In this document: positions 18,101 to 62,858 of the stretch, piece by piece
How the letters are laid out: each line of letters starts with the position of its first letter
How positions within the stretch are numbered: position 1 is the first letter of the stretch
Notes under the pieces: model-generated
The model's input: only the letters and a program-made list of their open reading frames with translations
Databases searched by the model: none
Told to the model about the DNA's origin: nothing
Translations under genes and position numbers: made by a program
Assembly: GCF_037975245.1 (NCBI RefSeq)
Contig: NC_092577.1
Span: 35,146,898-35,210,897, forward strand
DNA: 64,000 nt
Origin: Apostichopus japonicus
Lineage: Eukaryota; Echinodermata; Holothuroidea; Aspidochirotida; Stichopodidae
Direction: 5' to 3'

Positions 18101-19570
18101 CATTTTGTGGAGCCCTTTGATGTTTGTTCCATTACATGAATAAGGTTGTTAATGTCAATATTTTGTTATTTCTTCCGCAGGTCACAAAAGTTCTTCTAGG
18201 AGCCCATGCACTGTTAGCTAATGGATATATCATGTCAAGGGTCGGTTCTTCTCTCATCGCCATGGTAGCCAAGTCACAAAATGTGCCTGTTCTTGTTTGT
18301 TGTGAGACGTACAAATTTAGTGAAAGAGCACAGACTGACAGTTTTGTCACCAATGAATTAGGTAAGTCTGACAATAGACCAAACTTGTTCCCCTCCCCAC
18401 CCTCTATATCCCCACCCTCTTTATCCCCACCCTCTTTATCCCCACCCTCTTTATCCCCACCCTCTTTATCCCCACCCTCTTTATCCCCACCCTCTTTATC
18501 CCTACACCTCTTTACTAGTTATGTCTCCCTCCTTCCTTCTCCCTCTGTACCCATCTTTTGTACACCATGCTCCTTACTTTTCACTTTTTTCCCCCCTTCC
18601 TTTTTAATCCTCACACATCCTGTCCATCCACAACACCCACTTAGTTCTGTTTGGCTTCCTAATCCCTACCTTCATTCCTCCTTTCATTCTTCATACTCGT
18701 CAGCAGTCTATCTTCATAGCCCTCATCTCCTAATCTGTTTCATCGCCTTGGTTCAGTCTATTTCATTTGTTCATTGGTCCAATTTAGTTGTCTGTCCAGC
18801 TGTCTAGGTTTAATGTGTCCTTCATTTTGTTGTCGTTTTCCTTAGTAACAATATGTCAAGCCCTCTTGACTTCATACATTGCTATACAAAATTATCAGAT
18901 TAGTCTCTAAATATGCTAGAAAAGTCTAGAAATGGTCAGCTCAAAATTCAATAAGCATTTTTGGTTTCCCTAGAAGGAAAACTATGAAGTCCCTCAAACC
19001 GACCTTACACAATTGTGAGGGGGACCGCGGATTGCATATTCGGCAATGACTATAACACGGATCGCAAATCGGTAATTACTATTTCGGTTAGATGTGTCCA
19101 ACATGGGAGCATACAGAAACATACTCAAAGTCGAAGCCAAAGTGAATTAATCAGGTCACACATACAGAGTCTATGCATGCTAAGTTCTTCAATACCGCCC
19201 TCTTTACCTAAGCTTTGATTACCTCCCTGAGACATTTAGTAGTCTAATGAAACACTTCTCAATGTATAGATATATTTTGGAGGGGTCAGCTCAAAAAAGA
19301 TTCTCTAGAAACCTTCAAGCATGTTAAGGAGCAATCCTGATGACCATTGATCTTTTAAAATTCTTCTCAGGGGACCCTGATGACCTGGTTCATAGCAACA
19401 GTTCTGTGGACTACCTGCGTAACTGGAGGTCCATTAAGAACCTTACCGTTCTCAACCTGGTCTACGACGTGTTCCCCCCAGAGCTGGTATCCATGGTGGT
19501 CACCGAACTTGGGATGATCCCATGCACTTCCGTACCGGTGGTCCTAAGGGTTAGGAACGTTGAGGGATGA
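12161..19570 (+). CDS. EIF2B4: Translation initiation factor eIF2B subunit delta
   Basis: Ten coding exons: 12161-12418, 13113-13206, 13432-13526, 14374-14549, 15102-15209, 15601-15703, 16417-16550, 17307-17487, 18181-18361 and 19371-19570. All junctions keep phase and give 509 aa, close to the human 523. eIF2B exchanges GDP for GTP on eIF2 in the cytosol and is the target of the integrated stress response; delta belongs to the regulatory alpha/beta/delta set. The Lys-rich N-terminus includes [18 protein letters not shown]. The C-terminal Rossmann-like domain shows [45 protein letters not shown] and [16 protein letters not shown]. An in-frame TAG lies 7-9 bases before the ATG, so this is the first Met. 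Oddities are a 63-bp tandem copy at the exon 8 donor and a 65-bp copy of the coding tail after the stop. Intron 8 holds MITE copy B. Confidence 0.96.
16590..16835. repeat. intron repeat with internal duplication
   Basis: In EIF2B4 intron 7, GGGTCCGGTGAGGGGCATGG (about 16600) and a near copy at about 16785 both run into GGGCCCTCTTTTGAAATT-type sequence. Between them lies a G-rich block ending ATCCGGTATGTGTAATTTTC, which recurs in AK2 intron 1 at about 24835-24895. Confidence 0.6.
17441..17557 (+). repeat. 63-bp tandem duplication across the EIF2B4 exon 8 donor
   Basis: The block AATGTTCATACGTTCTTAT... to GAGGTGATTA occurs at 17441 and again at 17504, with one mismatch in the compared part. 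Each copy carries the end of exon 8 plus the donor GAG|GTGATT (exon ends 17487 or 17550). The offset is 63 bp, exactly 21 codons, and the frame stays open. Confidence 0.9.
17672..18042 (+). mobile_element. TTAA-flanked MITE, copy B (full length)
   Basis: 371 bp, bounded by TTAA at 17672-17675 and 18039-18042. The ends GGCATTGAAGACTCGC and GCGAGTCTTCACACCC are imperfect inverted repeats. The interior has no coding potential. It lies in EIF2B4 intron 8 and is highly similar to copy C at 62887-63258. TTAA target sites fit a piggyBac-related source. Confidence 0.85.
18395..18513. repeat. 15-bp minisatellite in EIF2B4 intron 9
   Basis: About eight units of CCCCACCCTCTTTAT, starting about 34 bases after the exon 9 donor. 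The unit length is a multiple of three, so a frame reading PPSLS repeats stays open through it. That frame is intronic. Confidence 0.9.
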
Positions 19571-21670: not shown

Positions 21671-24600
21671 TTACACAAACATGACTTTATCCTTCTTAGC
21701 CTGTGCAAATACTGCTAAGATACTGGAATATACACTGCCTGGTTCTCTTGCTGCGTCTATCTTAGCATGAAGACCCTGTTTCTTGTAGTAGTCTACTAGG
21801 GGTACCGTCTGTGTGTGGTACGCCGTCAGCCGTTTCTTCAGCGTCTCTTCGTTGTCGTCTGATCTCTTGATCAGTGGTTCCCCGGTTACCTAGACAACGT
21901 CGGAAAAGTGAAAGTGTTATTATGAGGTTAAATCGTCGATCTCAAGTTAAAAACGATGACATTAGGATGTATATTTGTGGATTTGAACCATTTCAGACAG
22001 ACTCGATTGCAAAAGTCCCTTTCTTCTTTGCATCTGGTACGAGGAATTATGGCACATGTACAAAGACTCTACTTTTACCGGTGGTACTTCAACAACTCGG
22101 CAGTGAATGTCCGACCATTGCGCATCAAAATATTATTTTTCAATATTCATAGTAAACTTCCCACAATAACAAGTAATGGACTGGTTGGCAACAATGCATT
22201 GCAACATTAAAATTCAGGGTTTATTCGAAGTGAAAGTGTACTTCCACAAAGTTCAAAAGGATACATTTCCTTAGCATACTGCATATATGTATCACAAGCA
22301 ACAATGTTTCCTATAGAAGTTTTGAGAAAAGATGTGAGTAATTGGGTGAGATCATCTTATCACTTTTGAATTTTCATAGGGTTTAATAGATACTCCAGAT
22401 ATGACATGAATATTCATGATAATTACTCACATCATCCTTCATGTGTTCCTTTGGCGGACTGAACTCTTCGTGGTACGACCTTCCGCTTGGTTTGTGGATC
22501 AGCCTCCCTGTGATCCTCTTTATAAGGAGTGAATCGTCGATGCCAAACTCAACCACCGCATCCAACTTTGCATTTCTCTGCTTCAGCAGGCCATCCAGCT
22601 GTGAAACAACAAAACAAAAGATGAAGAGGAGAAAAAAGAACCACTTTAAATACTGATTACCATGGAAACGAGAGTCAACTATCATTAAATGCTTGGGGCT
22701 TGACGGATTGGAATTTGTTTACCGGTTGGAAAAATCAAAAATATTCTGTATTAGTTTTCATCATTGTAGAGCTGATACAGATATGTTCACATTTTCTATA
22801 GCCAGATTGAAGGCTCCAGGTTTGTCTCATATACAGTAGGGTTCTACATGACTCATGTGTACACAAGCTGCTATGTATACTTCTTTCTACTCGTGCTTGT
22901 ATAGCAATTTACCCCATTCCCTGCAAGGCTTCAGAGTGAACAGAGGCGGAAACCTTATAATCATTATATCTCAACAAGCTGCAGGCTGCCACACCCTAAT
23001 ACTGGAACATGTGTAGCTTCCCTCTAATGAGCAGAAGAACCATATTGTTTATGGTGGAGGTCAAAGGTCAATGTGCTCTTTAGGCGATAAATGATTATTC
23101 CCTTTTCAAGTGAAAAATTGCAAATTTTCAAATATCAATAATGGTCAGTAGAGATGAAGAAAGCAATCCCTCACACTCAATGTCTTTTGGAAGGGACATG
23201 TTGCAATCTCTTGTAAACAAGTTTTTTTTAATTTGCTTGCCTCCAACGATATTGCAAAATACACATGCTGTAAGTTACTCTATATTTCTGTACTATGCAA
23301 AGGCATATAGTACAATACAGCTTTATCCCTCCACCTACGCTGGAATGTAATTGCTCACAACTATACATCAAGTAATTTTGAGGTTTATGAAATTTCCTTC
23401 ACATGAAATGATCCAATGTAAATCAAAGTATATACAACGTCTTTTCACTGGTGTAGTAAGTTGGCCATTTTGCTGTTATGCAATACCTACCTTTACACCT
23501 TTTATTTATAATACCATACACCTGGTATGACATAGATATTGGGATATATATGGTACTGCCTATATCTAGTAATGGCAGTATAGTCTGTGTATTGACAATG
23601 ATTACATATTACATATTGCTGTAGCTTCTGTGATGGACTGACAATACACAGAATCATAGCCACTGTGTGAACTGTAAACAGTGTACAGGAATTCGTAAGT
23701 GAAGGTGTGCTGCTGTAAACCTACCCAAAGGCCAAGTAATCATCACCAACTTGGAACCAAATGAAACCTTAGAAGTGAAAACACTTCCTGTCAAACAAGA
23801 ATCTTCTGATTTCAGGAAGTTTCTATATGATAATTCTATTTCCAGAAGACACAAACAAAACCAGGACAACTGGCTTAATATGACAGAGATCTTTGTGAAA
23901 GACAACTCCCCTAAACAGCTAAGGATAAATATTGATCCATTGGGGAGATATCCTTGTTGAAATGGTTTAAGGTCATTTTCCGGAGGTTGTCATTTTTAAA
24001 TCTATGATGACATGTCAATAGTTCCACATAGTGGAATATTTTTCTTTCTCTTTGTTTTTTTTGCTTTTCATATTTTCAAAGTAGAATGTTTTGAACTGAA
24101 ACCAATGCTATCATTAGGTCATGATACAAGGTTCAATATTTTAGATTCAACATTTAAATTGAGGAATATAAACAAGGTTCCCCCTCTAAGATGATTACTA
24201 TCTCTCTGCAATTTTCTGGAGATTTTTGTGGTAGATGAGGGGGTTAAAGTGAAAGGCATAGAATGTGAAGTACCTACAGACTGCATAATTCAGATTACCA
24301 ACCCGCAACCCCCCCCCTTCCCCCTTCCGTGCAGCCATTTTACAGAATAAAGAACATCCAATGGGCGTTTTACCAAGAATTGTACAGTTTGCTTGTTAGT
24401 TTTACCTTCTCTGCTTGGACAACTGTCCTTGGAAACCCATCAAGAAGAAATCCATTTTTGCATTCTGGGGAGTCCAGTTTATTGTCAATCATCTGTACGA
24501 CCAGCTCGTCGCTGACCAACTGACCGGCATCCATCACCTTCTTCACTTTCTTGCCTAGCTCTGATCCAGATGACACTACTGCCCTCAACATGTCCCCCGT

Positions 24601-27600
24601 TGCTAGGTGACAGACACAAAACTTCTCCACCAGTTTAGGTGCCTGTGAAGAGTCAATAGAGAGACCTGATTATAAAAATCAAACTTGAATCAGAACATTA
24701 ACCTTGTTTTTTGCTCCTTGCTTTGACTAATAATACAGATTCAGTTCAGCACCCTGTGCACTCTCTTTGAAAGTTACAATAACTTGCTTCCATTTCATCT
24801 TTCATGGGAGGTGGATGGGAAAGGGAAAGAGGGTGGGAAGTAGACAGGAGGCATTACAGGCAGTTGATCTGGTATGTGTAATTTCCTATGATAAATTTGG
24901 TATTAATTACAGTACAGAGTACTCTAAATGTTGTGTGTCGCAAAAACAATTTATATATATATATACTGTATATGCTACCAGGATTTTAAAAATGTTTGCA
25001 TTCTCTCAGAAAACCTTGCCTCCCTACAGTCTTTCATGAAAACATGCACTTTAAAATACCTCAACAAGTACGCACAATACTTAGTTGTACAGTAATGACA
25101 CCTGACAAAGCATTGGCTTGGGCGCAACGGAAGCCTATAGTGATAGGTCTATATTGTGCACGGAAAAATAATAATCAAATAATGAAAGCTGTAACTAGTA
25201 CTGGGGACAGTTACATTAGAAGTACTGTACTTTGCATTTAAACAATACACTTTTTGTTCATTGAGCATTGCAGTATGGGCGGCCTTTTGGGCAAAAAATA
25301 CAACGATGAAACAAGAGACAAACAGACAAGAACAAAGATGAAAAGGAACAATGATAAGAATGTAGATAAACGACATTTACTGCGCGAACTAAATGAAAGA
25401 TCGCCCCCACGATTGAAATTTTCCCATAGATCAAAACGAAAGTTGGGACAGAATCAAAAGGAATAGCGGGCAAAAACAAACGGCCGTCAAAACAGACGGC
25501 GATATTCTAAGCATGCCTCTTTTTCTTAGAAATACCCTCAGCATACGGCAATGGCGCAGCTCGAACCGGATCTTGCTGCATAGAAATTTTGTGTCTTAGC
25601 GTTATAATTATCAGGTCGATATGTACTTGGTCACGGTGACAAGGCCTGTCTATGATAACCATTATGACAGTGTCCCTCGTCTGCCTCTGCCCTGGCTAAA
25701 ACATTCCCTTGTGGGCACAATGACAACACGACAATAGTCCAAACAGTTCACTGACCTTGTAAAGCACTGTGCAGCATGGTAGGACAGAAGTGTCGTGCAT
25801 ACAAGATGTCGTAACTACATTTCGTAATATAACACAGTCAAGGAAAACCAAAACAGCGGAATCTGTCCCTTTTAGTTCATAGGCATTTGTTCGTTTCGCA
25901 TGAGAGCGTTTGTAATAGATTTCATGCGAATGTCCTTTTGCTTACAACATCTTCATTTTTATGGTGGCGATTGATCTTTTTGTTCTGAAATGTGGATCAA
26001 TTTTGACTTCCCTGTGCTCCTTGTTTATCCTTCAGTGGCATGTGTTTGATATGTTTCGCTAAATGATTGGTTTTTGTTTCTCTTTTTAACTGTGCCTTTC
26101 ACAATTTTTAGTATTACATATGTTTGTTTCATTTTGCCTATTTCTTCTTTTCCAATTTTCTTTCTTGTTTATTTGTTTCATCGTTGTATTTTTTGCCAAA
26201 TGGCTGCCCATACTGTAGATGCAAGAATGTTTGCAGACAATGGTTATAGGTACTATTAGCCAATCAAATCTCAGGAAATTTGGAAATGCACCATTGACTA
26301 CTGTAGTTTCAGAATGAAAATCTTTGTAACAGGAGTCTTGTTAGCTCTGTACTTGGCAGTTTTTCAAACAAATTCAATCATCTATACAAAGGATTGGAAG
26401 AAATTTCAGTTCTTTTGACAAGTTGTGGTGTTTTGAAAAGAAAGAAAGATACTTAAAAAAAGTGTTTGTTATGCTTTGCATGGACCTAGATGTGAGAGTG
26501 TGTACTACAAAAAGTTTGCGTCCCCTGGACGCAAGCAATTTGAAGGTTTGGCAAACCCTGGCTAAAAGATTGCGTCCCAGACGCAGAATCCTGCGTTTGT
26601 AACAATGCTGTATATATCTTTATATATATATAAATATATCAATATATATCTATATATATAAATATATCGATATATATATATATATACCATTTTATGGCAC
26701 CAATGATCCTAAACCTAAAAAACTTGCAATGACAATTGTAATCAGTAGATATACATATAATTCCATGTACTGTGTATTGACCATAAACTAAACTAACCAA
26801 AGTATATATACAGAATAGATCTGATGGTCCTCATCACCTCCCCCCTCTCCCCCACCCCTTCTTTCCACACCCTATTTTGTCAGATACTGTACATGATGAT
26901 GCTGGATGCCTGCTAACAAACTCCCACCCAAGAACAAAATGACTAACCCCTTGACTTTCCTTCCTAGATGATATATTTTCATCCATGTTTATTTGAATTC
27001 AAGATCACACTTTAATATTCTTTACCTGCATTCCTTTACCAGCCCCTGGTGGTCCTAAAAGAATAGCATTTATACCAATTCCAACCTCATCTTCATTGAC
27101 TTCCTCAACTGGACCACTTCCTTCTAGCTCAGCGGCCATTTTCTGTTTTTTTTCCTTCCAAAATTGTCAAAATTATTTTGAAATTGAAATAATAATCAAG
27201 ATCCCACTGTAGTAACGCAAAGACTAGTCTGCTGTGTGTACTTCTTTGGTTATTAATTTCCTTGCCTTTCCTTCAAAATTGCAATTTCAACTTTTTAAGA
27301 CTAGAGAAGGTTTAGCTTCAACGATCTATAGCCGTAACAGTCGGGAAATAGACAGTGAGGTGAGACAAACGTTGTCCAAATAATGGTTTCGAAAAGTCTG
27401 TGAACAGATAATATCTAGCACGACAAGGACAATTTCACTGCAGCCCAAAATTAATTACTCCAGATTTGTGTGACAGTCTGTACGAACAAGGAAACACTAC
27501 TGTCCGTCTGTTATAAACCTGTATAGTACCACAGCACCATAAGCAACTTCAGATCAATAATCCAAACAGTGCAATGTTGATTAAATCTTCCTCGGTACTT

Positions 27601-30600
27601 TTAACGACCAAAATCCCACGATATCACGACAGGCCTCAAGGTTAAATTGAACACTCTCTCGCTCATGAAACCTTTCGTCCGATGATTCCAATTAATGATG
27701 CTATAAACGTTAACACTACTGTAGAAGCACTTAGGTACTTTGAAATTAGTAGTACTGAAAAATCCAACACACATCTAGATCCACAGTAGGAGTATGTTGA
27801 CAAGTCTGGCTTGCAATATTTGCTATTTTTTTTATGACACTCCCTTAGTTATCTACAGGCCTGCATTTTTAAGAACATGACGTCAATTTGCTATATGGTA
27901 GGAACTGTTAATACCGTCTGCAATATCAATCAATGATATGTGCATGTGGTAATATTAAACAGATTCTTTACAGTTAGTAATAATGTTACGTTGCTAGCTG
28001 GTTATGAAATACAACGCATTTTACAACACACTAGTCCAAGCACAGCTAGAGTAGTATAAAAATGTCCCAGGACAGTGGATGCTATATCCTGGTGTATACA
28101 CTACTTTTCCTGCAATCGAAAAATGTTAACCTTCCCTCGGAAATTTCCTGGTACTGAATGTATCAAACAGGAAATGTATAGTGTGGTCTGCATAGAGCTA
28201 GTACAGCCCTATACTGCAGATATCTGTGAAAATAAATATGCTGATCCGATCTATGGAGATCCTTGCCTTACTAACACTTGAGCGTTTTTGAGTGTCTTCG
28301 GATTCACGGTAGAATCTGGTATGTACTGTGTACTGAAGGGTAATAAATGACAAGCATAACAGCTGGTCCCTGGTATTCAATACGAGTACAGTGTACTGTA
28401 TATACTGTATATTACAGTGCTTCAGATGTGCGTCAGTTGTTCACTATGGAATCCCAGGGCAAGTAAAATTGTTTTGTTGTATGTGACATGTACACTAACT
28501 ATATATGGGTATGCTTAAGTACTGATTCCCAGATCCCAGGGTACTAACAATAATGGTAGTACTGTATAGTTGTAGCACGGTGTACTACTATGCATGGCTA
28601 ACTAGTACAAGTCTAAATTGATTGGTCACACGTACCTACCAGGGCAGTTTTACCTCCAAGAGATTGGAATGATGAAAACTGATTGCAATTAAGAGTGATG
28701 TGGATGTTTTAAATATTTATGGAGCATAACGGGGGGGGGGGAAGGGGGAGGGGTTGCCTGAGGATGAGTAATGGGTATCACAAGCTTTAATAAATTAAGA
28801 GACAGATGAGATGACGATTGATGTGTGGGATGGGTAAATTAAATACAAACAGGGGACTGATTGTGAATTGATCTGATTCAGCATGTGTTTGAGGGGGTTT
28901 GTAGTACTATTGAAGTGCTAATGACCCTGCAATTTAGTGTGGCCCTTCTTTGGTTTATATGCATAGGAAATGTAATTATGTTGTAACTTTTGTAGAACAT
29001 ACAGTATCTTTGTTTAAGAAGATGGAGAAAGAAAGGGGGTGGGGTGGGGGGGGGTATGGAGAGTGTCAGGGAGAGAGAGAAGCCGGAAGGGGAGTGGAAG
29101 GGATACTTGTATACTGTTGTTAATGTGCACAGTATGGGTTGTAATTACTACAACTGCATACCTTTAGGGAGGGGAAAGGGGAGGGGAGTGATGGGAGAAT
29201 ATAATATATTGTTACTGCTAATGTGTATTGTATTCATGTATTGCAAATTACAACTACTGTAGGGTACTAGGGTTGAAGTATTTATCTTTGATTACACCGA
29301 CACTATTACTGTATATTAATATGGCAGAGACGGGGACCATGTTGATGCAGGATCGGGGAGGTGGAATTAGAGGAATGGGATGAGGTTGGTTAGGTAGGTA
29401 GGACTGATATAACAATACCTCACTTAATTTAACTGTCCAAACGTACCTGTCTCCCCCATACTGTACATGAGCACTCCTATTGTACCCACTGTACTGTGCC
29501 AAGGTAAAAACCTGTTGTAACATTTACCACTCCCCGACCCCAGCAAGGCCATTGCCCACATTCTCTTTCTTGAATATAATTCAGAACCCCTATAACCCCC
29601 TCCCCCCCTACCAACATGTACACTGCAAGGAGTTTAAATCAGTCTGTTCCTTCTACAACCCCACACAGTCAAATTAACTACACCTGTACTGTACTATACA
29701 TACAGTATGTATATAATACATACTGCAATATATATACAGTATAATAGTGTACATACATACAAAAACTGCTCAAGGAGAACCACATGATGAAACGCACATA
29801 GTTTTCTGACACAGTGAACACTCAGTTTGAATGCAGCATTCCAGTATGTCTTCAATACAGGACCTTCAGAAACTGATGTGTTTGCATAATCTTTGAAAAT
29901 ACTTGTGAATTTGTGAAACAAGGCTTAAAATACAGTGATGCTAACCTTTGTGTACAGTATAAGCCTTTTCCCTTGAGGGAACATTACTAATTCTACATGT
30001 GGGAGTTCATGGAAAAACCAGTGCTTAGTAACAAGCATACTGCAAAAGTAGTGGAAAGACATGTGAGGTAGTTTCAAAGTATCTAACAACCATTTTCAAA
30101 GAAGTTTTGTGCTAATTATCTAAAAGTACTAATAATGCAAGGCTAGAATTTTTCCATTTTAGTAATCAATTTTCTAAATGAAAAAACAAAGCTATGGGGC
30201 AGGGATACAGTAATTTAGGCTACTACAACAAAACTAATTTTTTGTCTAAGGTAAGTTACCAGACCTTGGAAACTGCAGGGGTAAGGGAGAAGATGTCACC
30301 CAATGTCGCCCCTTTTCAGCGATGGAGGCTGGGTGGGATGGGGGATGGGGAGGGGTTAGGAATACAACAATGAATAACTTTTATACAGGGTGAATACATG
30401 AGTATAATGTTACAGTGAATGGGAAGACAAATACTGGAAGGAAAAAACATAAGAAATGCTTTTAACAACTAGAACTCAATACTGGTTTTTAAACACTCAA
30501 CTGTCCAAATGTTATAAACACTACTGTGCATGTCTGCAATGTGTACAACACATTATGTGCAGACAATGCAGTTGGGTTTTGGTTCACTAGGTGAGGGGTA

Positions 30601-33600
30601 AAATTGAACATTTATAATTTTTAATAAATTCATAGGTAAAATATTTCTCATGACCTTTGTTTTTATCTTCTTCTCTTATTTCTCCTCCAAGGGTACAGTA
30701 TATCACTGAACTGTATAGCATTAGCTTGTTCCATACCCTTTGTGGGACCTTTTATCTGATTGGCAAACTATCTTGTTTGCTTAGATAAAATGGCAGATAT
30801 ACAGGATAGTGTGTAGGATGACTGTGTGAAAGGTGACACAGTCATGTCAGTACAGAATACAGTATGTAATTTACTATCTGCATAATGTTCAAATCAGTAT
30901 TAAATCTAATTTGCTTGGTTTGTTATGCAAACAAATTCATAATGTACAATTTAAAAGCTCTTCACTACGGTAGATCCATCCCATATATAGATTCTGTGGT
31001 CTTTCTACAGTGTCTCTGCAAGCACAATGGATGTGTTGTACATTAAGGAATACGAAAATATTTTAGGGTCCAAAATTTTGTAAAGTGCTTTTTGAGGTTG
31101 ATGAATATTCTTTCACGTAACATATTACGACTAATTTTATCTTTACATGACCTAGTGATACAAGATACTGTATGTTAACATTTTACCTCGAAAATATAGA
31201 AAGGAAAACAAACAGAAAGTTACATATATATATTTTGTATCTTTTGTGGCACTATGACATCACAGATTCACAGAATTCACAAAATGACAACTCACAAACA
31301 TGAATTCTTAAAACTAGGATAGAGCTCTCCCAAATTAAACTCTAGGAGATAGAGCTCTCCCAAATGGAAAAAATTTTCTTAGCTGTTTGAGTGAGTTGTA
31401 CATCACACTACAAGCTAAAATGGTGGTTGGGTTTGTACTACTTTGTAATAGCTCACCATATAAAGCCTGTGGTATAGTAAGTACACTGCATGTACTACTG
31501 TAAAGCCTGCCAGGGTTTACCTTTACAAAGTAGTTATATGTAGCATACACAGTTGAACATTTCATTCATGAACAATAACGTACATGATACGCAACTAGCT
31601 GCATGTCATACACAATTTTTTTGTAGTTTCTGGCAGCGATATTACTTAATTTCAAATTTTACGAACTTATGAAACTTTGTACTGACATGATAATGGAAAT
31701 GACTGTAGGTAATTTTTAATCATTGATTAAAAATTAGCTAAATATTAACTGAAAGATACCAAGTGCAGGGTTGATTTTATGCTATTTTTGGTCACTACAA
31801 AATGCAAACCTTGCCCACACTGTGCTTATTTATAAATGGTACTGTATGGCGTCTTCACCTTAACTTTGTTAAATTATCACATGTTGAAGGCATGACTTTG
31901 ATATCATATTGCAATGTTCTGATAGGAAGGAGGCATGGAGGTTGTGAAACAGGGAATTAAGATGGTGGAAACACTCCAACATGATGGAAAATTTATGATT
32001 GTAGCTTAGATCACAGATTGCAGAGTGCCTCATGTGGTGTGCAGAATTAAGGTTGTTGCTACGTACAGTACATGCATTAAAGAACAGAATACAGATACAG
32101 AATGCATTAAAATCTGTTAACTGTCACTGGCATTTAGCCAGTACAACTTTAGCACAAATTTCGAGGCAGGTCTGTGTACATCCACACTACAGTATTGTGA
32201 CTCAGATACACAGTACTGTTTATCATACGGCTGTTAGGAGAGAGGAGAGGGGAATTGGAAGGAAATAAGGAAAAAAATCCTTTTTCTTCATCACCATGGC
32301 AAAATCCTTGTTGTCCCACTTATTTTACACTGAATGCAACTTTTAACATTGTTCAACGTCCACTGGGATACATGTGTTTGTTTGTGTCAGTATTCTCAAC
32401 AAAAATTTGAAGTAGAAAATTTGTAAAGTGAACTATATATAATAAGCAACATGAGCATTGATGGCTGTTAGCCTTTGGGGTTTTGCTACCAAAACTCCAA
32501 CTGTCCTCTCCACCCCACTCATACAAATTAAGTAAAATTATTGGTTTGTTACAACATTGTGGATATACAATAAACCGGATCTGAGAAGTAATAAAGTTAC
32601 ACAAACTTTCCAACAGCCACTTCAAAAACAAGAAACATTTACTGTGAAACATGCTTCAAAGTCAATACATTTGAAAACTTTGAAAAGGTCATCAAAAATT
32701 CCTTTGCATTCAAAATTTTAATAGTGCTCACATGAAGATTCAATCCTCCAAAATGGCTTAGAGGTTGTTTCGGCAAGGTTATAAGGGTGGTAATTCGAAA
32801 ACGATATGAACAGTTGGTAAAGATAGAATTTTAACTGTTTACAAATGTCTAAATTGTAGCATATTGGGACCAGTATCACTGTACTTGGCATTATGACATA
32901 AAAATGTAGTTGCATACATTTGCCTGGCTTTCTGAGGAATATAACATTAAAAGACATGTCATGCATAAATATCCTTAAGATTCTTCCAAGAAGTAAAGTG
33001 TTATCCCCCTAAGCTTCAGGATATGTATTCCAAATGAATATAGATTAGGTTACCCTAAAAAACAACAACAAAAACATTGAAAACTTTGTACAACCCTAAG
33101 TTAGGCATTAGAACTGTTAGTGTTACTATGCTACTAGATCTAGGGGCCTAGAACTTGTAGTACTAGTACTATAGCCTAAGCCTAGGTCAAAATGGTTTCA
33201 GCTATTCTCCGCACACGGTACTTTCCGCTGAAAAATTTCAACAAATTGTAACTGCTGGATGAACAGTGGGGTAATAACAGTTGCTTTTCGCATGTCTGTT
33301 TGGTCGATAACCATGATGTAAAATTTCAAAGAATATGTTCCCCAGCAGTCAATATTCTTGAATATAGGTAGGGCCTAGGCTAGGTCTTGGCAGAATTCCC
33401 AGGCCACAGTAATATTACTTTATTAGACCTCATGAGGCATACGCCAAGGTTAGTCTACATGACAATTTCTGCAACACAGACTTGCCACTGAGGATTCAAT
33501 GATAAAAGTTCACAACTGTCATTTGAACCTTGGCAATTTGTCAAACTTACCTGGGTGCCTTTTCCTGCTCCTGGTGGTCCAAGTAGGATAGCATTTACAC

Positions 33601-33649
33601 CATCGCTATCGTCAGCTGTAGCAAGTTTAGGAGCTGCCACAGGTGCCAT
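21671..33649 (-). CDS. AK2: Adenylate kinase 2 (distal first exon isoform)
   Basis: Minus-strand exons are 33649-33551, 24642-24406, 22598-22431 and 21889-21671, all phase 0. They encode 240 aa against 239 in human AK2. The enzyme converts ATP plus AMP to two ADP; AK2 is the form of the mitochondrial intermembrane space in animals. Motifs in order: P-loop [10 protein letters not shown] (24-33), [13 protein letters not shown] with the AMP-binding side, [33 protein letters not shown] and [22 protein letters not shown] forming the LID, and [13 protein letters not shown]. The C-terminus ends DKVMFV. A separate first exon at 27139-27026 gives a second isoform. Intron 1 is about 8.9 kb and holds a long-TIR element. 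The PRPP synthetase gene starts about 1.5 kb away on the other strand. Confidence 0.96.
24795..24895. repeat. dispersed G-rich repeat shared with EIF2B4 intron 7
   Basis: GGTGGGAAGTAGACAGGAGG, then ATCTGGTATGTGTAATTTCC, matches 16700-16765 closely. Only two copies were seen in the window, both intronic. The family is not identified. Confidence 0.55.
25271..26215. mobile_element. long-TIR non-autonomous element in AK2
   Basis: The left end CAGTATGGGCGGCCTTTTGG continues GCAAAAAATACAACGATGAA. The right end is its near-perfect inverse, ending GCCCATACTG. The strong inverted match is about 45 bp and fades over the next 30 or so. Total length is about 945 bp with no protein-coding signal. No clean target duplication is visible. 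It sits in the intron between exon 2 and the proximal first exon of AK2. Confidence 0.65.
26516..26600. repeat. small cluster of GCGTCC inverted repeats
   Basis: TTGCGTCC and GGACGCAA form an 8-bp stem at 26516-26534. GCGTCCCAGACGC follows at 26572-26584, then CTGCGT. The stretch stands out from AT-rich surroundings and runs up to an AT repeat. Confidence 0.5.
26610..26687. repeat. AT-rich microsatellite
   Basis: TATATATA-type simple sequence with interspersed CTT, CAA and CGA. Simple repeat only. Confidence 0.85.
27026..27139 (-). CDS. AK2: AK2 alternative (proximal) first exon
   Basis: Encodes 38 aa: [20 protein letters not shown], then [18 protein letters not shown], ending at a GTAAAG donor in phase 0. 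It can join the same exon 2 (24642) as the distal exon, giving a 245-aa isoform. The last 17 codons parallel the distal exon: seven codons differ silently and only two change the residue (V to I, T to M). This is the mark of an old duplicate kept as protein. The sequence before its ATG is purine-rich with no pyrimidine tract, so it looks like a true first exon with its own promoter. The ATG context is good (A at -3, G at +4). The last-but-one residue of the P-loop motif is Met where the family has Thr. Confidence 0.85.
27140..33550 (-). other. AK2 intron between the two alternative first exons
   Basis: No further exon was recognised. The interval is AT-rich, with many TACTGTA/TACAGTA words, poly-G runs near 28730 and 29050, and a short direct repeat (GATAGAGCTCTCCCAAAT at about 31318 and 31349). 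The part just right of 27139 should contain the promoter of the proximal isoform, but no clear element stands out. Confidence 0.55.
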
Positions 33650-35109
33650 TTTTATAGTATTTTTCAGATGCAGTCGTTATACCTTACCACGACAATACTG
33701 GTGATTTATTCACACAATAAGAGAATGATGACTTCGCACAACTGATTGAAAGAAGGAATATAAATGGAGACAATATACCTGTTTGCTTGGCAATATACAG
33801 GTCGAATCGTGTGTAAAATACCACACTAAGAATTGCTGCAGTAACGTAGTGTAACTGATTTGTATGACTGTTTACACAGTACAGACACCGCTTGTCCACG
33901 TGGTGTATATGCGTTTAGTGTAGAAGCGAATACGGGTCCGAAAGAGTTACATTAACAACTTTATAAAAGATAGAACTTTGAAGCTGCCGTTGGAATTTCA
34001 ACATTGCTAACTCATTAAACATGAAATTAGATACGGAAAATTGATTACTTAGACCTACTTAGCCAAACGATGAATTCTCATTCCTATTTCATTTACCATA
34101 TAAGCTTCCTTACTTTAGTGTCTGTGATTGCCAAAGTACGATGAACTTTATAGAGGTGACGGTAAAATATTGACCTGGAATTGATGCAAAGGACTGGTGG
34201 TAAACATTATTCAGCCCAGCCAGCACCCGTCCTGAGGATTATTAACAAAAACTTGGCTGTAACATAACCATCATTTCAGTTTCGCGAAGTACCCAAGAAT
34301 CTTCTAATAAAGGTAGTAGTAACCAGAATTTTAGTTTGACTAAGTTAGACCTAACGTTAGGATCTAGTATATGGTATACTTACGATGTTCAGATCAGCTA
34401 GTCTACGTTATCGCGTAATCAGTTCCAATGATATATCTGTACTTGAAAATGGATTCTCAATATTTTACTAACATCGACCAAAGCTCACTAGGGCCCGAGA
34501 AGCTAACAAATACTTGTAACAGACCTATTATTATTATTTAGGACTTCCGTGACTTGGGCTTAGGCTATGCCCAAATTACTTCTAAGTTCTATACACTAGT
34601 TATATTAGTTAGGGCTTAGACAGTTAAAGTTAGACAATGCAAATACCTTTTCATAAGCATGATTTGTAATTGTAAATATGATATCGTATAATTTAAAATG
34701 ATTTTAAAATTTATCATAGCAATTATTTCAATTAGGTGCCTTTGCCATCCAATTGCCAATGTATCAGAATTTTAGGTAACTGCTAATTCTGTGGTAAATT
34801 CTTAATAATGTCGTAGTTGGTTTTAACTTATAATTGAATTAATCTCTTTCTGCCTTTAATTTTTCTGAATATCCTAAAAGGTTGGAATTATATTTGGCTA
34901 ATTTTTTTTACACATCTACATCCTTCATAGATCTTTAAAAACTTTCTTGAATTCTCATTAGGATATAAGAACAAGTAAAACAAGATGGTATAATAATATT
35001 ACAAGTTTAAGTCCCTGTGTCTGGCTATCCTGGTCAATACTTACTCATAAGTAACTCCAGATGGCTTATGTTTCTGATTCAATAAAGGGACCTAATATAG
35101 GTGTCAGTC
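33650..35109. promoter_or_regulatory. divergent promoter interval, AK2 / PRPP synthetase
   Basis: Head-to-head gap of about 1.46 kb between the two start codons. A palindromic E-box CCACGTGG lies at 33896-33903, about 250 bases upstream of the AK2 distal ATG. On the plus side an ATG at 35061 would open a short upstream frame overlapping the PRPP synthetase start, if it is in the mRNA. No CpG island is obvious. Transcription starts are unknown. Confidence 0.4.
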
Positions 35110-44292: not shown

Positions 44293-45450
44293 CAATATCC
44301 GTCAACTGAAAGTAATCATCAAATTCCGAATTAGGAAACGTTCCGAAATCCATAAAAGCCGCATGGCGCCATCGAAATTAACTACAGTTGATAATAAATG
44401 CCATAATGTTGTCTTTCAGTTCCGCAAGTTGCTGTTAGGTTTTTCTCGCCAACCGGGAGCTAAGAAAGCAACACTTTGCGAACAAACTTCTTTTAATGAT
44501 TATTATGCATTTCATTATATACCATTTGCTATTACAAAATGTCATGGGTGTCTTTTAGAATATTTATGAACTTCACAACGTATTTATGAACACTGATGTG
44601 TAATGTACGTCTAAGTTTGTCATGCAGCTCATTCATTCATTGTAAAGATTTATTGGCATATCCTCAGTTAAAAGGAAAGAAGACTTTATTAAATATGAAA
44701 CTATGAAAAATACATCTAGTGTAACAGTTTTATGAAGCTCATATTTGGAATATACCTTACGCCAAACGAGTACCAGCTTCGATCTATGCTTGATCGAAGG
44801 GTCAAATTATACATACGTATTTCGACCGTGTCTTACCAGAACATGTGTTTAGTGTGAACATATCTGTAGAAATTGGATCGTCACTTCCGGTGTACAAAGA
44901 ATTGAAAGGACACACTTCTTTCTCATGAACTTTTCAGAGATCTTAACTTTGAAATGAACCTAACTTACAAAATAGTGCAGTCCAATATTTGACCTAGAAA
45001 TTCGGAATCGATCCATGAATAAGACGATCGGAACAGTTTGCTATATGTTTGGCAATCAAAGAAGAATGTTCAACCAGATATTAGTAAACCGCTTGAAATA
45101 TACATCACATTATAAGAATGGTTGTAGTTTGATGGCTTGTTCCACTTTTAATTAGGGATAACTTTCCAAAGAACGAAGGATGTTCCCCCTCCATGTCGTC
45201 TGTTCGGTAGCCACACGCTACCGATGTATACCATCAGTCGCATATCCTCTACATTTGCAATACGTACTACGTGTACTCATCATTTGTAGTAAGTGTAGTC
45301 ATTATATTATGTGTGTGCACAGTGAAAATGGCGACCACCAGTGTAAGGTCGACCGTCGATTTCTTATGATCTTTTTGGATTAATTTGGAATTAATCATCT
45401 AATCGTGCTAGTTACTATGGATCTATGTCATTAATGTGTTTGAGAGAATC
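44293..45450 (+). promoter_or_regulatory. EXT1 upstream region
   Basis: Immediate 5' flank and probable 5' UTR of EXT1. CACTTCCGG at 44882-44890 is an ETS-type site about 560 bases before the start codon. No other element was clear, and the transcription start is not identifiable. Confidence 0.35.
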
Positions 45451-46355
45451 ATGCAAGCCAAAAAGCGATATGTTTTGGTGACGTTTGGAGGAGTTTTATT
45501 GTTTTTGCTGTATTATGGGGGATTACACATGCTGCATACAGTTGGACCAAAAAACCACAACAATGTACGTTCGTTGTTAGAAGTGAGCCTACCATTAACG
45601 TTAGATATTACTGGGGAAGAATTATCCACTAAATCATTGAAACAAATGAAGTCAGAGAGAGATAGTATTTATAATAACCGAAAGTGCCGCATGGAAACAT
45701 GTTTTGATTTTAACAGATGTAGAAAAGGTTTTAAAGTTTATATTTATCCGTCTTCACAGACGGATCCCATCAGTGCAAGCTACAGCAAAATTTTGACATC
45801 AATAAGAGAGAGCAAATATTACACAACAGATCCTGATGAAGCCTGCCTGTTTGTACCTTCTGTAGATACCATAGACAGAGACAAGCTTAGTACAAAATAT
45901 GTTCATAATGTAAAAGAAAAAATAGAAAGTCTCCCATATTGGAATATTCACGGTAGAAATCATTTAATATTCAATTTGTATTCAGGGTCCTGGCCTGATT
46001 ATTCAGAAGAATTAGGATTCAATGTTAATCAAGCCATTTTAATCAAAGCAAGCTTTCCAGTAGAAAATTTCCGCAAGGATTTTGACATTTCTTTACCTTT
46101 ATTTGGAAAGACACATCCACAGAAAGGTGGTTCCAAGGGAGATCTTCAAGCAAATAATTTTCCAGTGCAAAGGAAATATTTGCTAGCCTTTAAAGGGAAG
46201 AGATACCTTTCAGGTATAGGATCTGATTCTAGGAATGCATTGTATCATATACACAATGGAAACGATATCATTCTATTGACAACTTGTAAACATGGCAAAG
46301 ACTGGCAGAAACACAAAGATGCCAGATGCGATAAAGACAATGCAGAATACGACAG
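45451..46355 (+). CDS. EXT1: Exostosin-1, first coding exon
   Basis: A single exon encodes 301 codons plus two bases and ends at donor CGACAG|GTAAGT. EXT1, with EXT2, polymerises heparan sulfate in the Golgi by adding alternating GlcUA and GlcNAc. The start MQAKKRY matches the vertebrate N-terminus, so the ATG at 45451 is preferred to the upstream GTG frame. A signal anchor (about residues 8-27, VLVTFGGVLLFLLYYGG) fits a type II Golgi protein. Conserved blocks follow: KCRMETCFDFNRC, FKVYIYP, ACLFVPSVDT, NHLIFNLYSGSWPDY, KYLLAFKGKRYLSGIGSD, RNALYHIHNG and TTCKHGKDWQKHKDARC. The rest of the gene (full length about 740-750 aa in vertebrates) lies beyond the window. A large first exon followed by a very long intron is also the vertebrate layout. 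Confidence 0.96.
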
Positions 46356-48839
46356 GTAAGTGGTGACTGTGATTACCCGTAGGTCGTGATCTTTGACACT
46401 GAATTTAACCCAATTTTATTTTTTCACTTTTAAAATTTTACAGATAATTAATGGCATAGGTTAAGTGTCACAAAGATTGGTAGGAGTATAACATATTATG
46501 TAGTTTATACCTCTAATTTAAAACACAAAGCAAACACTTCTTGAAATTGCCATTTGGTTGAAGGTAGGAAATCATCCAAAAGTAGCCGCAGATGTTCTGT
46601 TCATTGCCCGGCCATTACGTTTATGGCTGCAGGCCGTTCCAGGTTAATGCAAGGTTTATTTGTGACAACCATCATTAACCTGTAAAGATTGCCAAATGGA
46701 TTAACAAAATTGATTTGCAACGGCTTATTGCCTACTTACAACATTATGTTATTTGGCATTGGCCTATCATTTCTTGGATGACTAAATTGTCATTCAGACT
46801 GGGTGAGAATGTTTTATAGTTTGCACCTCTAAATGCTCAGATGTGGTACTCTCTGGCTTTCTCTGTTGAGAACGACGATCTCAGTTGAATTCTCATTTTG
46901 GTGGGTATCGGGAGAGAACTTGAAGAACTGTAGTGAACGGTATAGTATTTACTAATAAACTTAATATACTGAATAAAATCATCTGATTGAAAAACTCTTC
47001 TTCAGCAATTGGTGGTCATATATTCGGTCATTGTCACCGGGCCCACCCACTGACCGGGCCCATGTAGTTTGCACTGACATCACATCAAGTTAAGTTGCAT
47101 ATTTTCACTGGTTCAAAGATTCAGTGTGTGATGCCTCTGCCCCTTGCCCCCAAGGGCGTATTGAGATGGGGTGGGGGTCGAGGGGCAGAGACGACCACCG
47201 CCACTTTATGGAAATGAGAACAAATAAAAATAACCAGATCTGAATCACACAAAATGCCTGACATTTAGGTATATAGGGTACTGTACAATGAGGCATGTGT
47301 AATGAGCTCAGTTCAACAGAAACTGAATCATATCTGGTGTACCAACTGTAAGGAATGGGTGCTCAATTAAATTTTGAGTTGACAAAATACACACGTACTG
47401 TACCACCAATTGAACTGACAAGCAGTATACTGTACTGTAGATAGCTGGCTGATCTGATCCATTGTGAATGTGTGATAGAATGCAAAGTAGAGAAAATATA
47501 GGCATTCTAAACATGTAGCATTAAATGGGGAGGGGTGGGGAATGGGGTTTGAGGGAGCGATTGAGAAATAAATATTTGGTGGAATTGTAGGGTCAGTTGT
47601 AGAAAATAGGAACTTGACCCACCACCCCAGACAGCCTGAAATCATGCACACATTACTAATGTTTTTAACTTTTAGTTTTTATTATTGAGAAAATATATTA
47701 CTGATTATTAATTAGTGAAACTTATTGATATGCATAACACTTGTTTGAGGCAATAAATGAACTTAGGCCTATCTAAGAGAGTGTCATTCCATAGGTCGAC
47801 TCTATAGGCTTACACAGGTCTCTGTAGTTCATAGGTTGTAGGTGCAGACCTACTTTTCAAAGCCCCCCTCCCCATTTTGTGATCCCAAATCCACCAGACC
47901 TCTGTGATAATGGTCAGTTGAACTCAACAGTTGTGTACGGCACTTTGACCAATACAAAATTTAGACACCCAGAATCCCAGATGATGAAATTATCTAGTGG
48001 GCGGCTTGGGCCAGAGAAATCTCTTTCATTAAACAAAAGGGAGGCAATTGGCAAGAGAAATGATATGCGTTTTGCGACCACTTCTGGTATGAACTACTGA
48101 ATGACCTTGGCAGAGTTGTCAATTTATAGAACCTTTGGCAAAACTTTCCAAATAGTCGTAATCAATGTACTGTAATTATGTTCATTTTAGAATTAGAACA
48201 ATATCCTGTTTCCAATTAGGTAGCGTGAGATACTGATGTGAACTTTTGTGTAAATTTGAGTAACATCCTGCACTTCAGGTGGGCTGTCAGTTAATTGTAA
48301 ACCTCTGTCCACTGGAAAGCACCCCTTGCTGCCTTGCAACAGTCACACGGATATTCAGAGTTCAAAAAGGAAGGGACGACTGCTCCTTTCTCCTCAACTC
48401 TTGGGGCACTTTAAAACTAATTTCTGTGTTCAAATTGTCGCATATTGCGATGGCTGCTGAGGGAATCACTCTCTGGGCCCCTACAGAGGCTGTGCCTTCT
48501 GTTCACTTGCTTTGCCCCTCCCCCATTACAGCAATTGCTGGATCTGTTTTCCCCAGAGGCCCAGATCCTTCTGAGCCCCTTCCCTCTGGATAAAAGTTTG
48601 TTTTTAGTTGACTTTGCCAAAACCTGTTTAAGATGGAGCTCTTAAAAACAAGACTATGGAATCTATGTGCTGGTTAGAAAGTATAGCATAAATTTACTTT
48701 TTTTCTGGTACAACCTGTGAACCCTCTGACTCTTTCCTAGACCCTTCCCTTATCCACTCTCCTCCCCTCACCCACCCTTTGTCGCTTACCCACTCTCCTG
48801 CCCTCACCTGCCTTACAGCAATCATGTAAAGTACTACAG

Positions 48840-62149: not shown

Positions 62150-62355
62150 ACGTACAGCAGTCGTGTACGTGGGCTTACTTGCAGTTAAGTAACTGCTTTG
62201 TTTAGTTCTTCATACTGTTTTCGTACAGCAGTCGTGTACGTTTTCCCTTGGCAGTAAAGTAACTGTTTTTGATTTAGTTTTCACAGCTTCAGGTCTCGGA
62301 GATTTCTCGAAAAAAAAAAAAAAAATTTTTCGGAGATTTCTCGGAAAAAAAAAAA
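62150..62355 (+). repeat. direct repeats with internal palindromes before a retroelement ORF
   Basis: CGTACAGCAGTCGTGTACG, itself an inverted repeat, occurs at about 62151 and again at 62222. Each is followed by GCAGTTAAGTAACTGC-like sequence, also palindromic in the first copy. Then TCGGAGATTTCTCG plus poly-A occurs twice (about 62297 and 62331) just before the ATG at 62367. Confidence 0.75.
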
Positions 62356-62366
62356 AAAAAAAAAGG

Positions 62367-62858
62367 ATGGAAAACTGCCGTTCTTGTAAGCAGTTCCGTC
62401 CGTTCAAAGCATGGGATAAGCATGATTTATGCCCAAAGTGTCGCCCATGCGGGAGTAAGCAGACCTGCTCCATTTGCCAGGACTGGACCCAGGAGCGCTG
62501 GGATTTGATCGGTACCTGGCTGGCGGATAAAGCCGCAGAAAAAAGAAAGAAGGCGGCTTCCTCAAAGCAGGGGAAAAAGAAGCCGCCGGCGAAGGAACCC
62601 CAGGCGGCCATAAGAGATGGCATAAGCCCTAAACATGGGGGAACGGAGGGCGCCATACGAGATGGCTCAAACCCTCCTCAGGAACGGGTATCCATACGAG
62701 ATGGAGCTAATTCCCGTGCGGCGTCAGCTCAGCCACGGCCGCGACCCCAGGAGGGTCCGTCCACTTCAGGCCACGTGGAGTCCAGAAGCCCCCGAAGACA
62801 AGCGGTGGCGGACTTATTTACTTCAAAGTATTTTGTATTGGCCAAGGTATTGAATTAA
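62367..62858 (+). CDS. Cys-rich gag-like ORF of a DIRS/Ngaro-type retroelement
   Basis: 163 codons from ATG to TAA. The N-terminus holds a Cys/His array: CRSCKQFRPF, KHDLCPKCRPC, KQTCSICQDWTQ. A charged KKAASSKQGKKKPP stretch and three IRDG repeats (at about 83, 96 and 109) follow. The C-x2-C...D-H-x2-C-x2-CR...C-x2-C layout recalls the first ORF of DIRS/Ngaro-like tyrosine-recombinase retroelements of marine invertebrates. That link is from memory and not proven. GC content is clearly higher than the surroundings. It sits inside EXT1 intron 1, after a set of direct repeats. No reverse transcriptase or recombinase follows, so the element is truncated at its 3' side, 28 bases before MITE copy C. 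Confidence 0.5.
   Translation: MENCRSCKQFRPFKAWDKHDLCPKCRPCGSKQTCSICQDWTQERWDLIGTWLADKAAEKRKKAASSKQGKKKPPAKEPQAAIRDGISPKHGGTEGAIRDGSNPPQERVSIRDGANSRAASAQPRPRPQEGPSTSGHVESRSPRRQAVADLFTSKYFVLAKVLN

What the first reader, a model, noticed from the sequence alone, without database searches (positions are those of the whole stretch)
27026..33649. AK2 has two alternative first exons that each encode the P-loop
Exons 33649-33551 and 27139-27026 both start with an ATG, both end in phase 0 after an [14 protein letters not shown] block, and both can splice to 24642. They differ silently at seven of the last 17 codons but change only two residues, so both appear to be maintained as protein. The N-terminal heads differ completely (Ala/Pro-rich versus acidic). 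In AK2 the N-terminus bears on localisation, so the pair could yield differently placed enzymes from one locus. I know of no described AK2 with a duplicated P-loop exon.
Basis: partly seen in the sequence, partly recalled or inferred. Interest (0 to 1): 0.78.

Follow-up and report, generated by a model that had tools for sequence, protein, structure and literature searches.

The report
Adenylate kinase with two first exons
A sea cucumber gene for a mitochondrial energy enzyme seems to have two interchangeable first exons, each carrying its own copy of the ATP-binding loop but with different front ends, so one gene could make two versions of the enzyme that differ in stability and in how they respond to ATP.

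Summary
The minus strand holds a complete AK2 gene: E2 24642-24406, E3 22598-22431, E4 21889-21671. Two ATG-bearing exons, E1a 33649-33551 and E1b 27139-27026, each encode the P-loop and end in phase 0 at a donor. Their last 17 codons differ silently at 7 and in residue at 2, fewer residue changes than neutral drift gives. Two signs independent of coding suggest E1b is a true first exon: a 400-nt ATG-free leader, and CpG enrichment just upstream with CpG loss just downstream, as at E1a.

E1b changes the P-loop threonine (GKGT to GKGM; AK1 Thr23); published Thr23 mutants stay active but respond differently to ATP. E1b also lacks the M-A-P start at which DPP8/9 cut human AK2, marking it for cytosolic destruction; E1a has it. 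The import cysteines and AIFM1-binding tail lie in shared exons, so the pair more likely tunes cytosolic stability and ATP response than targeting.

Neither transcripts nor related echinoderm genomes could be examined. Species: very probably Apostichopus japonicus.

The parts
33551..33649 (-). E1a, distal first coding exon of AK2; canonical M-A-P start and [11 protein letters not shown]-loop; donor CAG|GTAAGT
27026..27139 (-). E1b, proximal alternative first coding exon; acidic head, M-A-A start, P-loop [10 protein letters not shown] (Thr to Met); donor CAG|GTAAAG
24406..24642 (-). E2, shared exon (79 codons, phase 0), with the three import-type cysteines
22431..22598 (-). E3, shared exon (56 codons), contains the start of the lid domain
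21671..21889 (-). E4, shared last coding exon with stop; C-terminal KVMFV tail aligning with the end of human AK2
27140..27539 (-). inferred 5' leader and promoter-side region of E1b: no ATG in 400 nt, CpG o/e 0.69 against 0.12 in the 400 nt downstream of E1b
33650..33951 (-). inferred 5' leader of E1a: no ATG in 302 nt; CpG o/e 1.10 in the 400 nt upstream of the ATG

Best explanation
This is an AK2 gene with two alternative first exons, each behind its own promoter. The proximal one is an old duplicate of the coding first exon and has been kept. Transcripts from the distal promoter give the standard AK2; transcripts from the proximal promoter give a second full-length AK2 with the same catalytic body, import cysteines and AIFM1-binding tail but a different head and a T-to-M change at the end of the P-loop. 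Shown: both exons are intact, phase-compatible and under protein-level constraint, and both have first-exon features. Inferred from published human work: the distal form (MAP start) can be cut by DPP8/9 in the cytosol, while the proximal form (MAA start) should largely escape and so could build up in the cytosol as well as in the intermembrane space. Inferred from published AK1 work: the T-to-M change leaves an active enzyme with an altered response to ATP. Sub-step confidences: E1b is a used alternative first exon 0.8; the DPP8/9 stability switch 0.3; active but ATP-shifted enzyme 0.5.
For: Gene model and phases. Both spliced products score as full adenylate kinases: Pfam ADK 210.7 and 206.6 bits plus ADK_lid, TIGR01351 above cut-off. 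The nearest solved structures of the E1a form are AK2, best E about 1e-107 (E1b form not searched). Constraint: 7 silent codons against 2 residue changes, neutral probability 1e-4 to 5e-4; dS 0.94, dN 0.10. In a neutral simulation that assumes 0.1 indel per substitution, start, 38-codon frame and donor all survive 0.25 substitutions per site in 0.5% of 4000 runs and 0.5 per site in 0 of 4000. At the V/I site E1b carries the Ile that human AK2 also has (alignment), so E1b is not simply a decayed E1a. First-exon signs: of 1313 minus-strand ATG-to-ATG gaps, 3 are at least 300 nt, and two of these three lead into exactly 33649 and 27139. The 400 nt before the E1b ATG have 0 ATG, 5.75 expected from 2000 dinucleotide shuffles, P 0.0005. 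CpG o/e in the 400 nt upstream of E1b (0.69) exceeds all 106 intron-1 windows tested (maximum 0.57) and falls to 0.12 downstream; upstream of E1a it is 1.10. The E1b donor scores 7.85 bits, against 12.73 (E1a), 5.89 (E2) and 7.94 (E3) (weights recalled). The AG nearest to the E1b ATG has 25% pyrimidine in the 20 nt before it, against 75-80% at the three real acceptors. No second AK2 gene among 12 genome matches. Published basis: DPP8/9 cut of M-A-P, the first three residues being highly conserved in 163 species by that paper's account (PMC7527813 passages); AK1 Thr23 mutants keep function with altered ATP response (PMC3537612 passages).
Against: No transcript, protein or related genome was available, so use of E1b is inferred. 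The constraint test rests on 17 codons picked because they look alike. Thr is otherwise fixed in what I sampled: E. coli adk and 80 of 80 bacterial loci (the best 80 of 582, chosen for similarity, by a scan whose P-loop pattern admitted T or M only) and the two other P-loops read in this genome. T-to-M could therefore be the first sign of decay. The opposite strand over the E1b leader is also ATG-poor (1 against 5.40 expected, P 0.0125; plus-strand gap of 398 nt ending at 27383), so part of the ATG lack may be local composition; the third long minus-strand gap (ending 39957) leads into a 10-codon ORF only. CpG upstream of E1b is only at the 84th percentile of the whole window, and a CpG-rich patch at 25400-26000 has no AK2 exon. 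Only 80 nt before E1b were checked for acceptors; the two other AGs there have 50% and 64% pyrimidine, so an untranslated upstream exon is not excluded. E1a would expose Val after DPP8/9 cutting, and in human AK2 the S4V variant is cut yet stable (PMC7527813, PMC12152192 passages), so the stability contrast may be small. Cutting after Ala in E1b is not excluded. DPP8/9 orthology here was not shown: one DPPIV_N exon match, E 4.1e-6; MIA40 and IAPs were not searched for.
Confidence: 0.72

Rival explanations
1. E1b is a relic: an old alternative first exon (or the head of a lost AK2 copy) that evolved under constraint for a long time but is no longer used; the T-to-M change is the start of its decay.
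For: T in 80 of 80 bacterial loci sampled (scan pattern admitted T or M), while E1b has M. ATG can arise from ACG by one C-to-T step at a CpG (inference). No transcript evidence.
Against: ATG, 38-codon frame, donor and phase are all intact; a neutral exon loses these quickly (simulation). ATG-free leader and CpG step remain. No sign of a second AK2 gene.
Confidence: 0.15
2. E1b is used, but its product acts mainly as a regulator rather than a kinase: it keeps the AIFM1-binding tail and import cysteines while the Met in the P-loop lowers catalysis.
For: Tail and cysteines are shared; AK2A binds AIFM1 by its last residues (PMC7617965 passages); an AIF_C domain gene exists in this genome (three exon matches on C14).
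Against: Published AK1 Thr23 mutants are not dead (PMC3537612 passages; the substituted residue was not in the passages seen); the Lys and glycines of the loop are intact.
Confidence: 0.08
3. E1b is an internal cassette exon spliced after E1a, giving a protein with two P-loops.
For: The frame would stay open (AAA ATG GCC...) if the AG three bases before the ATG were an acceptor (sequence).
Against: That AG has 25% pyrimidine in the preceding 20 nt, against 75-80% at E2, E3 and E4; I know of no AK2 with a doubled P-loop (recalled).
Confidence: 0.02
4. The two exons reflect an assembly or contamination artefact.
For: None found.
Against: Different heads, flanks and introns and a 22% base difference inside the shared block; matches at one place on a contig of more than 35 Mb.
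Confidence: 0.02

Closest known systems
Human AK2 (AK2A/AK2B isoforms)
   Same: Same enzyme and body; three import cysteines, MAP start (E1a) and AK2A-type tail conserved (PMC7617965 and PMC12152192 passages)
   Different: Human AK2A and AK2B differ at the C-terminal end (PMC7617965 passages); here the difference is at the N-terminal end by first-exon choice and includes the P-loop
DPP8/9-controlled dual localisation of AK2
   Same: Same N-terminal three residues as the control element in the E1a form (PMC7527813 abstract and passages)
   Different: In human cells the choice is post-translational from one N-terminus; here it would be written into the gene as two N-termini
UGT1A-type loci with several alternative first exons joined to common exons (recalled, not searched)
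   Same: Duplicated coding first exons spliced to one shared set
   Different: UGT1A first exons encode substrate-binding halves; here a nucleotide-binding loop is duplicated
DUT-type nuclear and mitochondrial isoforms from alternative first exons (recalled, not searched)
   Same: A nucleotide-metabolism enzyme placed differently by first-exon choice
   Different: There one first exon adds a cleavable mitochondrial signal; neither AK2 head has an Arg or net positive charge

Membership tests
AK2 (long-form adenylate kinase) | Full ADK domain plus lid | tested here: met
   Pfam ADK and ADK_lid over cut-off for both spliced products; TIGR01351 over cut-off for both
AK2 (long-form adenylate kinase) | Closest solved relative is AK2 rather than another adenylate kinase | tested here: met
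   E1a form: the four best of 97 PDB sequences (60 shown) are AK2 chains. E1b form not searched.
AK2 (long-form adenylate kinase) | P-loop GxPGxGKGT | tested here: inconclusive
   E1a: met. E1b: Lys and glycines present, Thr replaced by Met
AK2 (long-form adenylate kinase) | Three import cysteines and MIA40-dependent import | tested here: inconclusive
   Cysteines present in both forms; import not testable here
DPP8/9-regulated AK2 | M-A-P N-terminus | tested here: inconclusive
   E1a met (MAPV), E1b not met (MAAE)
Alternative first exon pair | Two exons with their own start codons and leaders, in the same phase to a shared exon | tested here: met
Alternative first exon pair | Transcripts from both | not testable with these tools
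   No RNA data available

The most novel reading that the evidence does not exclude
The sea cucumber writes AK2's dual placement into its genome. One promoter makes the standard, DPP8/9-cuttable AK2 that survives only once inside the mitochondrion; the other makes a DPP8/9-resistant AK2 that also persists in the cytosol, with a Thr-to-Met P-loop that shifts its ATP response. It would be an ancient, selected exon duplication that splits one essential enzyme into two energy-sensing versions.
Probability: 0.27. Interest if true: 0.75.

Novelty: new variant of a known kind. Interest (0 to 1): 0.52.

Why it matters
AK2 is an essential enzyme (PMC7617965 summary) and, as far as I recall, has one N-terminus per gene. 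A selected second first exon that swaps both the degradation-controlling N-terminus and a P-loop residue would be a natural experiment on two open points: what the conserved MAP start of AK2 is for, and what the conserved P-loop threonine contributes, given the published puzzle that Thr23 contacts the alpha-phosphate yet adds little to the energetics of catalysis (PMC3537612 passages).

Tried and rejected
Rejected: transposon or repeat origin of E1b (901 bp matches only itself; the search skips very common words); a second AK2 gene elsewhere as source (of 12 matches, 4 are this gene's exons and 8 are 29-53% identical relatives; E1b itself is not among the 12, so a lone short exon could be missed there, but the E1b peptide search found only E1b and E1a); cassette-exon reading; a third P-loop exon in the window; a presequence-like head (no Arg, net charge -2 and -7).

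Led nowhere: the first genome-contig scan, with the E1a form, found no relative. The bacterial promoter scan of the E1b leader was at chance, 3 found against 3.1 expected (not meant for animals). Paper searches: AK2 with alternative first exon, 0; AK2 isoforms with N-terminal, Drosophila and cytosolic, 3 listed, none opened for this; sea cucumber with adenylate kinase 2, 2 off-topic by their listings; alternative first exons with exon duplication and P-loop, 0; assembly size in Mb, 1 off-topic, before one search found the A. japonicus paper. The Thr15 search led to PMC12548092, whose passages did not bear on Thr15. The Holothuria glaberrima genome preprint has no occurrence of adenylate kinase, AK2 or alternative first exon in its main text. 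Human AK2 exon boundaries were not checked.

Weak points of tests: the 400-nt leader length was set by the observed gap; the gap distribution avoids that, and at a fixed 300 nt 6 of 2633 window ATGs qualify, E1a and E1b among them. Donor weights are recalled approximations. In one search, 12 loci of the own genome were scanned for G.PG[SAC]GKG; besides E1a only two paralogues (L005, L011) fit, both with T; the other loci did not show that motif.

Full report
What is there. The minus strand of the window carries one complete AK2 gene. Coding exons are E1a 33649-33551, E1b 27139-27026, E2 24642-24406, E3 22598-22431 and E4 21889-21671; every junction is phase 0. E1a+E2+E3+E4 gives 240 residues and E1b+E2+E3+E4 gives 245. 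Both products match Pfam ADK and ADK_lid and NCBIfam TIGR01351 over cut-off. The E1a form matches human AK2 in the PDB at E about 1e-107; the four best of 97 matching sequences are AK2. The finding's statements about coordinates, phases, 7 silent and 2 replacement codon differences and dissimilar heads all hold.

Which genome. G000 has 671,581,487 bases in 35 contigs. Contig C35 is a 16,099-base mitochondrial genome whose genes read under the echinoderm code in the order cox1, nad4L, cox2, atp6, cox3, nad3, nad4, nad5, nad6 on the other strand, cob, tRNA-Phe ... tRNA-Leu, nad1, nad2; apart from cox1 and the tRNAs, gene names are from my own reading of the ORFs. The published Apostichopus japonicus assembly is 671.60 Mb in 34 scaffolds (PMC10344927, abstract and passages); 34 plus one mitochondrial contig is 35. 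The paper's scaffold total, 671,643,915, exceeds the G000 total by 62,428 bases.

Is E1b kept as protein. Of 11 differing bases in the 51-nt block, 8 are at third positions. Random placement of 11 changes gives at most 2 residue changes in 0.011-0.047% of draws. NG86 gives dS 0.94 and dN 0.10, with pN >= pS in 0.04% of 5000 bootstraps; the lower 95% bound of dS is 0.34 and the upper is undefined (saturated). In a neutral simulation with an assumed 0.1 indel per substitution, start, frame and donor all survive in 0.5% of 4000 runs at 0.25 substitutions per site and in 0 of 4000 at 0.5. Caveats: 17 codons, chosen because alike. At one of the two residue differences (V in E1a, I in E1b) human AK2 has I (alignment), so E1b holds the human-like residue there while E1a holds it at the Thr.

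Is E1b a first exon. Among 1313 ATG-to-ATG gaps on the minus strand only 3 are 300 nt or more, and two of these end at exactly 33649 and 27139; the third, at 39957, starts only a 10-codon ORF. On both strands 2 of 2646 gaps reach the 401 nt of E1b. In the 400 nt before E1b, ATG occurs 0 times against 5.75 in dinucleotide shuffles (P 0.0005); before E1a, 0 in 302 nt against 5.67 (P 0.0005). Against this: the reverse strand over the E1b leader is also poor in ATG (1 against 5.40, P 0.0125), which is not so at E1a (6 against 7.28, P 0.357). CpG o/e is 0.69 in the 400 nt upstream of E1b, above all 106 windows tried in intron 1 (maximum 0.57), and 0.12 downstream; upstream of E1a it is 1.10. But in the whole window E1b upstream is only at the 84th percentile, and 25400-26000 is CpG-rich without an AK2 exon. 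The donor is comparable with those of E2 and E3 and weaker than that of E1a. Within 80 nt before E1b the three AGs have 25%, 50% and 64% pyrimidine in front, against 75-80% at the real acceptors; acceptors further upstream were not tested. The E1b region matched only itself in the genome, and no other AK2 gene was found.

What the two forms would do. In the passages I read, AK2 lacks an N-terminal targeting signal and is imported by MIA40 using its cysteines (PMC7527813; PMC12152192); AIFM1 binding uses the last residues of AK2A (PMC7617965). All these parts are in the shared exons here. The N-terminus instead sets cytosolic stability: after Met removal DPP8/9 cut the dipeptide AP, and the exposed end leads to degradation; blocking the cut lets AK2 build up in the cytosol; the first three residues are highly conserved in 163 species. 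E1a begins MAPV and so keeps the site; E1b begins MAAE and lacks the proline. This predicts a cytosol-tolerant second form. Against it, the residue E1a would expose is Val, and in human AK2 the S4V change is cut yet stable; and cutting after Ala cannot be excluded. The mouse protein, too, exposes a different residue from the human one, so the downstream degron varies.

The P-loop change. E1b reads GKGM where E1a reads GKGT. The Thr aligns with E. coli Thr15 and, two residues after the loop Lys, corresponds to AK1 Thr23 (PMC3537612 names Lys21 and Thr23). It is T in 80 of 80 bacterial loci (the best 80 of 582, scan pattern T or M there) and in the two paralogue P-loops that were read in this genome. 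The Pfam ADK score falls by 4.1 bits. Published AK1 Thr23 mutants are not inactive but respond differently to ATP (passages; I did not see which residue was put in). I therefore expect an active enzyme with shifted ATP dependence, with the caution that Met is bulky. Met can come from Thr ACG by one C-to-T step at a CpG, so polymorphism in this one animal cannot be excluded (inference).

Verdict. A real, well-formed duplicated first exon in AK2, very likely functional (0.8). How the two forms differ is less sure: the stability switch 0.3, ATP response 0.5. I found no description in four paper searches of an open-licence library; this does not show absence from the wider literature or from public annotation. 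It is a new variant of a known kind, alternative coding first exons.

Noticed in passing
45412-46359 (+): Long ORF (315 codons, stop to stop) resembling an exostosin-type glycosyltransferase exon (likeness recalled, not searched).
   Followed up: no
62193-62858 (+): ORF with a MENCRSCKQFRPFK start at 62367, behind the longest of the six ATG-free stretches of 300 nt or more (511 nt) and CpG o/e 1.59 in the 400 nt upstream; gene or retroelement not decided.
   Followed up: no
25400-26000: CpG-rich patch in the intron between E1b and E2 with no AK2 exon; might be a regulatory element or an old insert.
   Followed up: no
L015 and G000:C29:14745-31219: Another contig holds COX1 in several pieces, as expected of a nuclear mitochondrial insert or a mis-assembled mitochondrial piece.
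   Followed up: no
18132-18518 (-): ORF with a GDKEGG tandem repeat.
   Followed up: no
27140-27382: Both strands over the E1b leader are short of ATG, more than dinucleotide content predicts.
   Followed up: partly
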